This document shows positions 23,096 to 26,027 of a stretch of 64,000 nt of DNA, one piece after another. The position numbers and the translations under genes are program-made. The notes under the pieces are model-generated. The model was given only the letters and a program-made list of their open reading frames with translations. It did no database searches and had not been told where the DNA came from. This DNA is from Bacillota bacterium. Lineage in GTDB: Bacteria > Bacillota > Sulfobacillia > JAJZYS01 > JAJYTV01. The stretch is from assembly GCA_021793645.1 (NCBI GenBank), contig JAJYSJ010000001.1:62001-126000 (forward strand), written 5' to 3'. Every line of letters begins with the position of its first letter. Position 1 is the first letter of the stretch.

Positions 23096-23275
23096 CTAGT
23101 AGCGCTGCGGTGTGCGCTGCTGCAGGTTTTGCTCCGCGACCTCCAATGCCGCCTGTACGAGCCGGCCGCAGTCCCTCGACGAGACAGATCCCCAGCCCTC
23201 GCTCGCGACGGTGGGGCCGACACCAAGCTTCGACGCGAGCTGCTGCTTCAACTCTTCACTCATCAGCTTCGCCAA
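23096..23275 (-). CDS. Alpha/beta-type small acid-soluble spore protein (59 aa, not in ORF track)
   Basis: LAKLMSEELKQQLASKLGVGPTVASEGWGSVSSRDCGRLVQAALEVAEQNLQQRTPQRY; TTG start with AGGAGGCG SD; KxxxASxLGV...GWGxVSSRDCGRLV pattern. Confidence 0.8.
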   Translation of the reverse strand: MAKLMSEELKQQLASKLGVGPTVASEGWGSVSSRDCGRLVQAALEVAEQNLQQRTPQRY

Positions 23276-23374: not shown

Positions 23375-24217
23375 TTAGGCGCCCAAGCCAAGCGCGATGG
23401 CGCCCGCGGTAATCAGCGCGGCGCCGAGGATGCGGTGGCGGCCGCCTGGTTCGCGCAGTACGTAGATGCCCAGCACGGTGCCGAAGACGATGCCGAGTTC
23501 TCGCATCGGCGCAAGCGCCGCCACTGGAGCATGTGTGAGCGCCCAGAGGAAGAGGAGATAGCTGAGCGGCGAAAGGATGCCAGCCGCCGCAATGGAGCGC
23601 CAGCTGTGCCGCCACTCCGCAAGCGCGCGTCCCGTACGCAGAGCGGGGATGGTGAGGACCGCGAGGTTTCCGGCGCTGCTCAGGGTGTTGAGTGCGATCG
23701 CCGGGATGTAGTGCAGGGTCACCTTGTCGACCAAGGTGTAGGAAGCGATCGCGAGGCCTACGGCGAGGCCGAGTTGGATGGCCGTGTGCCGAGCGTGCGC
23801 GAAGGAGAACCCTCCGCCGATGGTGAGTACACCGATTGCGATGAGCGCTACGCCCAGCCAACCGAGGCCCCTTAGGTGTTCGCCCAGCAGCAAAACGCCC
23901 AGCAGCGGGACGAACAGCGGCGAGGTGCCGCGCATCAACGGGTAGACTTGCGACAGGTCAGCAAGGGCGTAACTGCGCGACAAAAGCAGCACGTAGATCC
24001 CGTGCAGCGCGATCGTAAGCGCGAGGAAGGCCACGCCGGCGCCCGAGACCGCTAGGCCGCGAAGGCTCCACCACGCAAACGGAGCGTACACTGCGAGTGC
24101 AACCCACTGGAAGGACCAGAGGAAGAGAAGCGGGTTCTCGCTCCGCTTCGCCCAGAGATTCCAAAGCGCATGTACAAAGCCGGAAGCGACCACGAGAACG
24201 ATGCTGAGGGTAGACAA
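23375..24217 (-). CDS. EamA/DMT-superfamily transporter, candidate riboflavin (flavin) importer
   Basis: About 10 TM; MRGTSPLFVPLLGVLLLGEHL and a second EamA repeat; TTG start at 24217 with AGGAGG SD; preceded by FMN riboswitch. Confidence 0.85.
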   Translation of the reverse strand: MSTLSIVLVVASGFVHALWNLWAKRSENPLLFLWSFQWVALAVYAPFAWWSLRGLAVSGAGVAFLALTIALHGIYVLLLSRSYALADLSQVYPLMRGTSPLFVPLLGVLLLGEHLRGLGWLGVALIAIGVLTIGGGFSFAHARHTAIQLGLAVGLAIASYTLVDKVTLHYIPAIALNTLSSAGNLAVLTIPALRTGRALAEWRHSWRSIAAAGILSPLSYLLFLWALTHAPVAALAPMRELGIVFGTVLGIYVLREPGGRHRILGAALITAGAIALGLGA

Positions 24218-24246
24218 AAAGAGAGCCTCCTCTATGAGGGAGACTC
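24216..24246 (-). promoter_or_regulatory. Expression-platform hairpin sequestering the SD, followed by a U-tract overlapping the TTG start
   Basis: Minus strand GAGTCTCC-CTCATAGA-GGAGGCTC, then TCTTTTTG; the 3' arm contains the GGAGG Shine-Dalgarno. Confidence 0.75.
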
Positions 24247-24279
24247 TTCAGGGCAAAAGCAAAGCAGGGCTCTGCAAGA

Positions 24280-24411
24280 CCTTCTTTCATCCGGACTATA
24301 CCGTCGGTACAGGAGTCACACCTGTTCGTGCCGTGCGGCTCGTGGACTTCGCCTTGACGGCGTCACCACCGATTGGGAATTGGGGTTCCCCCCTCACCCT
24401 GCCCCGAAGGC
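24280..24411 (-). ncRNA. FMN riboswitch (RFN element)
   Basis: Minus strand contains CTTCGGGGCAGGGTGA...TTCCCAATCGGTGGTGACG...AAGTCCACGAGC...ACAGGTGTGACTCCTGTACCGACGGTATAGTCCGGATGAAAGAAGG, matching the conserved RFN blocks. Confidence 0.95.
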
Positions 24412-24530
24412 CATCGTCATTGTCGCACGAGCGGCAGCTGATGTCTTTAGCGACGCAACAGCTGCCCCTCGATTGCAGCGCAGATGGGACCTCCGGCAGA
24501 TGCGGGAGTGCGGCGGGCCCGCCGTGCGCA

Positions 24531-25916
24531 CTAGAGCGGTTCGAACTCCGCGGCGAAGTGTCGGAGGGTGGGCGGCTCGAAGGTGAAGCGGTATCCAGGG
24601 ATGGAGTCGCGCCGGGCCAGGATGCGTCTGCAGGCCTCCGCGACCTGCGAAAGGTGCGCCTGACTGTAGACGCGCCGTGGAATTGCCAGGCGCACGAGGT
24701 CGAGCGCAGGGTAGTCATGGTCGCCGGTTGTTTGATTGCGTCCCGCCATCACCGTACCGATCTCGACGCCGCGTATGCCGCGCTCGCGGTAGAGCTCAAT
24801 GCTCAGCGCCCATCCGGGGAAGGATCCTTGGGGAATGTGCGGCAGCATGCGTCCGGCATCGATATAGACCCCGTGCCCTCCGACTGGCGACATTACAGGC
24901 ACGCCCATCGCGCGCAGGGCGGAGTGGAGTTCGGCGACCTGCGCGGTGCGGTACGCGAGGTGGCGCTGCATTACGGACTCGCGAAGCCCCTGGGCGAGCG
25001 CGGCGAGATCGCGTCCGGCGAGCCCGCCGTAGGTGGCGTAGCCCTCGTAGAGGATGCCGAAGTCTCTCACACTGCGATAGAGATCTTCCGAACGCAGCGC
25101 GACGAATCCGCCGATGTTCACCATCGGATCCTTCTTCGCGGACATCGTGCAGCCATCCGCGAGGGACATCATCTCCCGCGCGATCTCCGCGACGCTGCGG
25201 CTTGCCTGGCCTGCTTCGCGCTGCTGGATGAGGTAGGCGTTCTCCGCGAACCGTGCTGCGTCGAGGAAGAGCGGTTTTTGGTAGCGCGTTGCAAGCGCCC
25301 GCACCCCACGCAGGTTCTCCAGCGAAACCGGCTGACCGCCGTTCTGGTTCGATGTGACGGTGACCATCACCAGGGGAACGCGGGCGCCCGCGTCCCGCAA
25401 GAGGGTCTCCAGCCGCGAGAGGTCCACGTTCCCTTTGAACGGGAAGTCGCCTTCCGGATCCTCGCCTTCCGAGACGACGAGGTCGACGGGCTCTGCCCCG
25501 CGGTTCAGGACGTGTGCCTTCGTCGTGTCGAAGTGCAGGTTGTTTGGTACGAGGTCGCCTTCCTTGACCAGCGCCCGGAAGAGCACGTGCTCCGCGGCGC
25601 GGCCCTGGTGGGTGGGCAGAACCAACGGGAAGCCGAGCACATCGCGCACGGATGCCTGCAGGTCCTGGAAGCTGATGCTGCCGGCGTACGACTCGTCCCC
25701 GCGCATCAGGGCGCCCCACTGCTCCTGGCTCATCGCCGACGTGCCTGAGTCGGTCAAGAGGTCAATGTAGACCTCCTGGGCCAGCAGCTTGAACGGGTTG
25801 TATCCCGCGCGCCGTATGGCGTCCTCGCGCGCTGCGGGGGGGAGCAGGTCGATCCACTCGATCATCTTGGTCTTGTAGGGTTCTGCAAGCGGCCACCCCT
25901 GGTCCTGATCCGGCAT
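24531..25916 (-). CDS. tnaA: Tryptophanase / beta-eliminating lyase
   Basis: TDSGTSAMSQEQWGALMRGDESYAGS, GCTMSAKKDPMVNIGGF (PLP-Lys), RLAIPRRVYSQAHL. Confidence 0.88.
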   Translation of the reverse strand: MPDQDQGWPLAEPYKTKMIEWIDLLPPAAREDAIRRAGYNPFKLLAQEVYIDLLTDSGTSAMSQEQWGALMRGDESYAGSISFQDLQASVRDVLGFPLVLPTHQGRAAEHVLFRALVKEGDLVPNNLHFDTTKAHVLNRGAEPVDLVVSEGEDPEGDFPFKGNVDLSRLETLLRDAGARVPLVMVTVTSNQNGGQPVSLENLRGVRALATRYQKPLFLDAARFAENAYLIQQREAGQASRSVAEIAREMMSLADGCTMSAKKDPMVNIGGFVALRSEDLYRSVRDFGILYEGYATYGGLAGRDLAALAQGLRESVMQRHLAYRTAQVAELHSALRAMGVPVMSPVGGHGVYIDAGRMLPHIPQGSFPGWALSIELYRERGIRGVEIGTVMAGRNQTTGDHDYPALDLVRLAIPRRVYSQAHLSQVAEACRRILARRDSIPGYRFTFEPPTLRHFAAEFEPL

Positions 25917-26027
25917 GAGCACGCCCTCCTTCGAACGTGACGAAGAGTTCGCAGGGCGCTGCTGCATTTCCTCGTAACTTCCCGATGGGAAGTGAAACAG
26001 ACCAAAGGATGCCCATACGCCTTGCGG

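What the first reader, a model, noticed from the sequence alone, without database searches (positions are those of the whole stretch)
23375..24411. FMN riboswitch controlling an EamA/DMT transporter: predicted flavin importer
All conserved RFN blocks are present on the minus strand (24280-24411), directly ahead of a 10-TM EamA protein and no riboflavin biosynthesis gene. EamA-type proteins under RFN control have been proposed as flavin transporters (ImpX in some Firmicutes/Fusobacteria, RibN in Proteobacteria), while most Firmicutes use ECF RibU. Substrate assignment here is inference from the riboswitch.
Basis: partly seen in the sequence, partly recalled or inferred. Interest (0 to 1): 0.75.

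Follow-up and report, generated by a model that had tools for sequence, protein, structure and literature searches.

The report
Riboswitch-controlled EamA transporter, likely flavin importer
A bacterium of the Bacillota carries a vitamin-B2-sensing RNA switch (FMN riboswitch) in front of a lone EamA membrane-transporter gene, and relatives keep the two together, so the protein most likely imports riboflavin where most related bacteria use a different kind of importer; the cargo itself is untested.

Summary
Rfam calls RF00050 at window 24415-24275 (-), 91 bits against a cut-off of 66.2, 57 nt ahead of a 280-aa EamA protein (24217-23375, -). The genome's other FMN riboswitch heads a complete ribD-ribE-ribBA-ribH operon. 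No ECF riboflavin S component was found in the ten genomes of its family. The pairing is conserved: EamA relatives in 13 other genomes, including Alicyclobacillus sp. ALC3, carry the riboswitch (47-68% identity where intact). The 12 intact proteins (window included) form one clade with a single riboswitch-less row. Fourteen of 14 leaders keep a hairpin that buries the Shine-Dalgarno sequence and a competing pairing with the aptamer's P1 5' strand: the layout of an OFF switch. A second EamA subfamily, with no detectable relation beyond the EamA domain, is RFN-linked in two other Bacillota families, so EamA proteins probably came under FMN control more than once. Flavin import is the best reading but is inference. 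ImpX and RibN sequences could not be obtained, so membership of those families is untested.

The parts
24275..24415 (-). FMN riboswitch aptamer (RFN element, RF00050)
   Evidence: cmscan 91 bits, E 1.6e-19, full length
24400..24412 (-). 5' strand of P1 and the next bases (GGCCTTCGGGGCA); pairs either inside the aptamer or with the downstream anti-sequestor strand
   Evidence: core 8 pairs kept in 14 of 14 leaders, 3 more pairs across a one-base bulge in 13 of 14; helix present in the MFE fold
24242..24255 (-). anti-sequestor/antiterminator 3' strand TGCCCTGAAGAGTC
   Evidence: CCCTGA(A/G)GAGTCTCC conserved in 14 of 14 leaders
24222..24247 (-). terminator-like hairpin AGAGTCTCC...GGAGGCTCT followed by CTTTTTG; its 3' arm holds the Shine-Dalgarno GGAGG (24226-24230)
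   Evidence: 8 of 8 hairpin pairs in 14 of 14 leaders; terminator scan
23375..24217 (-). EamA (DMT superfamily) transporter, 280 aa, TTG start in the U-rich tail of the hairpin
   Evidence: Pfam EamA, two repeats; AlphaFold/Foldseek DMT fold

Best explanation
An FMN-responsive OFF switch controls a secondary transporter of the EamA/DMT superfamily that most likely imports riboflavin or a close flavin into a bacterium that can also make riboflavin. When FMN is low, the 5' strand of aptamer stem P1 pairs with CCCTGAAG-A-GTC downstream; this holds a hairpin open, so the Shine-Dalgarno GGAGG and the TTG start are free and the gene is expressed. When FMN binds, P1 closes and releases that strand, and the GAGTCTCC...GGAGGCTC hairpin forms. 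It hides the ribosome-binding site and, where a U tract follows as here, probably also terminates transcription. Shown: riboswitch, gene, conserved linkage, conserved competing pairings (by sequence). Inferred: FMN response, direction of transport, flavin as cargo.
For: RF00050 at 91 bits. Relatives in 13 further genomes with the riboswitch: G001, G005, G009, G086, G087, G097, G098, G117, G118, G120, G121, G123 and Alicyclobacillus sp. ALC3. The 12 intact proteins fall in a 100/99-supported clade with one RFN-less row. Sequestor 8 of 8 and anti-sequestor 8 of 8 pairs in 14 of 14 leaders, the anti-sequestor in the MFE fold in 11 of 14, its extension overlapping the hairpin arm by GAGTC in 13 of 14. 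Where the aptamer is gone (G119, L080) the gene is broken too. The RFN-less in-clade homologue (G255) lacks Q37, N177, N184, T167 and Y170, which 11 or 12 of the 12 RFN-linked proteins keep and which are absent or nearly so from the other EamA proteins. PF07155 has no match in the ten genomes of the family and the weak PF12822 hit is BioY, while elsewhere the second FMN riboswitch mostly heads an ECF S component.
Against: No transport, binding or expression data. EamA proteins often export amino acids or drugs. The closest NCBIfam model is a phosphonate-associated family (136 bits, far below its 288 cut-off). The gene is patchy: only 4 of 10 genomes of the family have it, and it is split between frames in G005, G119 and G121, all metagenome assemblies. 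RfnT-like proteins, once assigned to riboflavin by clustering with rib genes and by E. coli complementation, proved to move copper (PMC6362234).
Confidence: 0.74

Rival explanations
1. The protein imports something linked to flavin metabolism other than riboflavin itself, such as a precursor, a breakdown product or a flavin analogue.
For: The riboswitch only says that low FMN turns the gene on; the closest non-RFN relatives are EamA proteins of unknown cargo. The genome already encodes riboflavin synthesis.
Against: Transporters known under FMN riboswitches and shown to work move riboflavin or roseoflavin (RibU, RibM, RibN; PMC4418817). The complete rib operon leaves no obvious precursor need.
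Confidence: 0.13
2. It is an exporter that removes excess flavin or a toxic analogue.
For: Many EamA proteins are exporters (family knowledge); structural matches include YddG (5i20) as well as importers such as LicB.
Against: The conserved platform would switch the gene off when the aptamer closes; a flavin exporter would be needed when FMN is high.
Confidence: 0.06
3. The EamA protein moves an unrelated compound and the riboswitch link has no flavin logic (chance capture of a leader).
For: Patchy distribution; one in-clade homologue lacks the riboswitch.
Against: The pair is kept in 14 genomes of at least three families down to 47% protein identity, with the whole expression platform conserved.
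Confidence: 0.05

Closest known systems
ImpX (Fusobacterium nucleatum, Desulfitobacterium hafniense; PMC4418817)
   Same: FMN riboswitch upstream, commonly a single-gene unit, found in bacteria that also make riboflavin
   Different: Sequence kinship not tested: no ImpX sequence could be obtained here
RibN (Rhizobium, Vibrio; DMT transporter, riboflavin uptake shown, PMC6362234, PMC10012899)
   Same: DMT-type transporter; FMN riboswitch in alpha-proteobacteria
   Different: Reported only from Proteobacteria (PMC4418817); orthology not tested
Second RFN-linked EamA family found here in families f69 and f51 (L220, L229, L230, L242-L250)
   Same: EamA domain, FMN riboswitch directly upstream
   Different: No significant BLAST or profile match to the window protein; nearest NCBIfam model TIGR00950, not TIGR03340
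RibU / ECF S components (PF07155, PF12822)
   Same: The usual non-rib gene behind FMN riboswitches in Bacillota
   Different: Unrelated protein family and energy coupling; not found in the window's family
TIGR03340 phn_DUF6
   Same: Closest named model, aligned over full length
   Different: 136 bits against a cut-off of 288

Membership tests
FMN riboswitch (RF00050) | covariance-model score above the curated gathering threshold, full-length aptamer | tested here: met
   91 bits against 66.2, positions 1-138
FMN riboswitch (RF00050) | an expression platform with mutually exclusive folds | tested here: met
   anti-sequestor and sequestor pairings in 14 of 14 leaders, overlapping arms in 13 of 14; prediction, not probing
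FMN riboswitch (RF00050) | binds FMN | not testable with these tools
   needs in-line probing or a reporter
EamA / DMT superfamily | two EamA repeats, ten membrane helices, DMT fold | tested here: met
   PF00892 twice; model pLDDT 83.5 with ten main helices; top Foldseek hits are DMT transporters
ImpX | orthology to F. nucleatum ImpX (the 2015 survey used more than 38% identity over 80%) | not tested
   no reference sequence reachable with these tools
ImpX | FMN riboswitch and co-occurrence with the riboflavin pathway | tested here: met
ImpX | single-gene transcription unit | tested here: inconclusive
   a 59-aa ORF and lexA follow on the same strand; no terminator-like site was listed in between
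RibN | orthology to RibN | not tested
   no reference sequence reachable; reported only from Proteobacteria (PMC4418817)
phn_DUF6 (TIGR03340) | score above the curated cut-off | tested here: not met
   136 against 288 bits
RibU / ECF S component | PF07155 or PF12822 match | tested here: not met
   the protein matches EamA; PF07155 not found in the genome or family

The most novel reading that the evidence does not exclude
This clade is a separate, so far unnamed family of EamA flavin importers, brought under FMN control independently of the RFN-linked EamA family of families f69 and f51 (and of RibN), and standing in for ECF RibU in its lineages. Q37 and N177, which sit at matching places of the two internal repeats, and N184 are the clade's candidate flavin-recognition residues.
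Probability: 0.4. Interest if true: 0.6.

Novelty: new member of a known kind. Interest (0 to 1): 0.45.

Why it matters
EamA transporters are numerous and mostly have no known cargo; a conserved riboswitch gives one clade a testable substrate. Vitamin-uptake reconstructions that look only for RibU would score these genomes as lacking riboflavin uptake. Two unrelated EamA subfamilies under the same riboswitch would be a natural experiment on how one transporter fold comes to recognise flavins, with named residues to mutate and a sequenced named strain (Alicyclobacillus sp. ALC3) that carries an ortholog.

Tried and rejected
phn_DUF6 (phosphonate) membership: rejected, far below cut-off. RibU in the same genome: PF12822 gave one weak hit, which proved to be BioY. 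Terminator-only switch: rejected for the clade as a whole, because most orthologs lack a U tract and only the SD-burying hairpin is common to all; in the window both may act. Getting ImpX or RibN references failed: the plasmid protein search gave DMT proteins of 33-38% identity among the best rows, and in the four annotated regions opened none lay next to rib genes; the plasmid search with the aptamer found nothing; an RFN pattern in viral contigs found nothing; the founding papers (Vitreschak 2002, Garcia Angulo 2013) are not held. A sequence search of the PDB with the clade profile found nothing. The upstream tryptophanase-like gene was considered as part of the unit and dropped, because it is upstream in G001 but not in G005 or G009.

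Full report
OBSERVATION. Rfam's FMN riboswitch model matches window 24415-24275 on the minus strand over its full length with 91 bits (cut-off 66.2, E 1.6e-19); it is the only Rfam match above cut-off in the 64 kb. After 57 nt comes a 280-aa ORF, 24217-23375 (-), with a TTG start. Pfam gives EamA twice at 75.6 bits. The nearest NCBIfam model is phn_DUF6, TIGR03340, at 136 bits, far below its 288 cut-off. The AlphaFold model built from seven orthologs has mean pLDDT 83.5 with ten main helices. Foldseek against the PDB returns DMT-superfamily proteins at the top: triose-phosphate translocator, SLC35B1, YddG (5i20; name from my own knowledge), CMP-sialic acid transporter, the choline importer LicB. 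A sequence-only PDB search finds nothing.

GENOME CONTEXT. The genome (3.4 Mb, 94 contigs, 96% complete) has two FMN riboswitches. The other, 110 bits, heads ribD, ribE (riboflavin synthase), ribBA and ribH in a row (gene names read from the sequences), so the organism should make riboflavin itself. No ECF riboflavin S component was found: PF07155 has no match in any of the ten genomes of the family, and the only PF12822 match in the genome, 26.9 bits, is BioY, a biotin transporter. Upstream of the riboswitch, on the same strand, lies a tryptophanase/tyrosine phenol-lyase-like gene. It is also upstream in G001 but not in G005 or G009, so it is not part of the unit.

CONSERVED LINKAGE. In the window's family four of ten genomes have the pair (G000, G001, G005, G009). 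Across the 154 held genomes of the class, EamA relatives at E < 1e-40 next to an FMN riboswitch also occur in G086, G087, G097, G098, G117, G118, G120, G121 and G123. A scan of named genomes added Alicyclobacillus sp. ALC3. Of its 11 loci, eight Bacillota loci all have RF00050 above cut-off; two Acidimicrobiia homologues (33-36% identity) and one broken copy do not. Protein identity to the window within the intact RFN-linked set is 47-68%; the next EamA proteins are at 37% or less, apart from G255 (42%). In a maximum-likelihood tree of 43 proteins the 12 intact RFN-linked ones fall in one clade (100/99) with one RFN-less member, from G255 (cmscan of its flanks). Two of the 14 genes (G005, G121) are split between frames, as decay or assembly error.

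DECAY AND LOSS. In G119 (L080) the gene is split between frames and the aptamer is gone; only the last piece of the sequestor hairpin, GGGGGCTCATTTTG, remains before the start. The G255 homologue, without riboswitch, lacks Q37, N177, N184, T167 and Y170 while keeping most other clade residues. Q37, N177 and N184 are present in all 12 RFN-linked proteins and in none of the 31 others. Q37 (helix 2) and N177 (helix 7) lie 140 residues apart, the same spacing as K24 and D164, so they probably sit at matching places of the two internal repeats (inference from numbering). G255 carries the other RFN-linked EamA instead (L245). Clade-specific residues arise in any clade, the comparison was made after the fact and G255 is a long branch, so this is a pointer, not proof.

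EXPRESSION PLATFORM. The leader after the aptamer is strongly conserved: CCCTGA(A/G)GAGTCTCC, a loop of 4-8 nt, GG(A/G)G(A/G)CTC, then TTG, GTG or ATG within about ten bases. The P1 5' strand CTTC(A/G)GGG can pair with CCCTGA(A/G)G, 8 of 8 in 14 of 14 leaders; the hairpin arms pair 8 of 8 in 14 of 14, with one-sided changes that keep pairing. The anti-sequestor runs on across one bulged A through GTC, with all three extra pairs in 13 of 14 leaders and varied 5' letters (GAC, GGC, GAT), so it overlaps the hairpin's 5' arm by GAGTC and the two cannot form together. In the unconstrained fold of the window leader the anti-sequestor forms (that fold is only 1.7 sd below shuffles); it forms in 11 of 14 leaders. 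Because the motifs are nearly invariant, covariation is thin and the support is conservation plus complementarity. The hairpin's 3' arm contains the Shine-Dalgarno GGAGG. In the window a U tract follows, so the hairpin also looks like a terminator (where shuffles give 1.8 such sites); in most orthologs there is no U tract. The reading is an OFF switch acting on translation, with termination probably added in the window's lineage.

WHAT OTHER LINEAGES DO. Of the other FMN riboswitches sampled in the class and phylum, most head either ribD or a small hydrophobic ORF; two such ORFs were checked and match PF12822/PF07155, and many PF07155 matches lie right behind riboswitch coordinates. Three sites in family f69 head an EamA protein of another subfamily (L220, L229, L230). 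It has no significant BLAST or profile match to the window protein and is nearest TIGR00950. A search with it found ten genomes of families f69 and f51, all with the riboswitch upstream, and relatives in G002, G005 and G052 of the window's own order; the G002 copy has no riboswitch, the other two were not checked. EamA proteins have thus probably come under FMN control at least twice.

LITERATURE. The 2015 survey lists RibU, RibM, ImpX, RibN, RfnT, RibXY, RfuABCD, RibZ and RibV, and finds ImpX only in bacteria with the riboflavin pathway (PMC4418817). A 2013 survey counts five FMN-regulated transporter orthologs (PMC3766115). A gut-genome survey finds facilitator-type riboflavin transporters only in riboflavin prototrophs (PMC6593275), which fits here. 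A caution: RfnT-like proteins were re-tested and move copper, and the E. coli ribB deletion strain used in the earlier assays reverts (PMC6362234). The one held paper that mentions both Alicyclobacillus and the FMN riboswitch names neither EamA nor DMT transporters.

VERDICT. The riboswitch and its control of this gene are close to certain. Flavin import is the best inference (about 0.74). It is a new member of a known kind, RFN-linked DMT transporters; whether it is ImpX, RibN or a separate family is open because those sequences could not be compared.

Noticed in passing
L220:309-1289, L229:480-1538, L230:465-1421; also L242-L250: A second RFN-linked EamA family in Bacillota families f69 and f51 (genomes of 4-7 Mb), unrelated in sequence to the window's; could be ImpX, not tested.
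   Followed up: partly
L251:1477-2409 (G002), L252 (G005), L253 (G052): Relatives of that second family in the window's own order; G002's copy has no riboswitch above cut-off.
   Followed up: partly
L080:2950-3706 (G119): Ortholog broken by frameshift, with the aptamer deleted but the last part of the sequestor hairpin still in place.
   Followed up: yes
window 23096-23275 (-): A 59-aa ORF just downstream that reads like a small acid-soluble spore protein (EELKQQLASKLGVG...); Pfam gave no match.
   Followed up: partly
window 24534-25967 (-): Tryptophanase / tyrosine phenol-lyase-like gene upstream of the riboswitch (NCBIfam subfamily model 639 bits), below the cut-offs of the specific tryptophanase and tyrosine phenol-lyase models.
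   Followed up: no
L152 and L159 (family f67), downstream of the FMN riboswitch: FMN riboswitch followed by an ORF that reads like an ABC transporter ATPase; possibly a RibXY-type system with its own ATPase.
   Followed up: no
L077/L013 (G005) and L079/L058 (G121): RFN-linked EamA genes split between two frames in metagenome-assembled genomes; decay or assembly error.
   Followed up: partly
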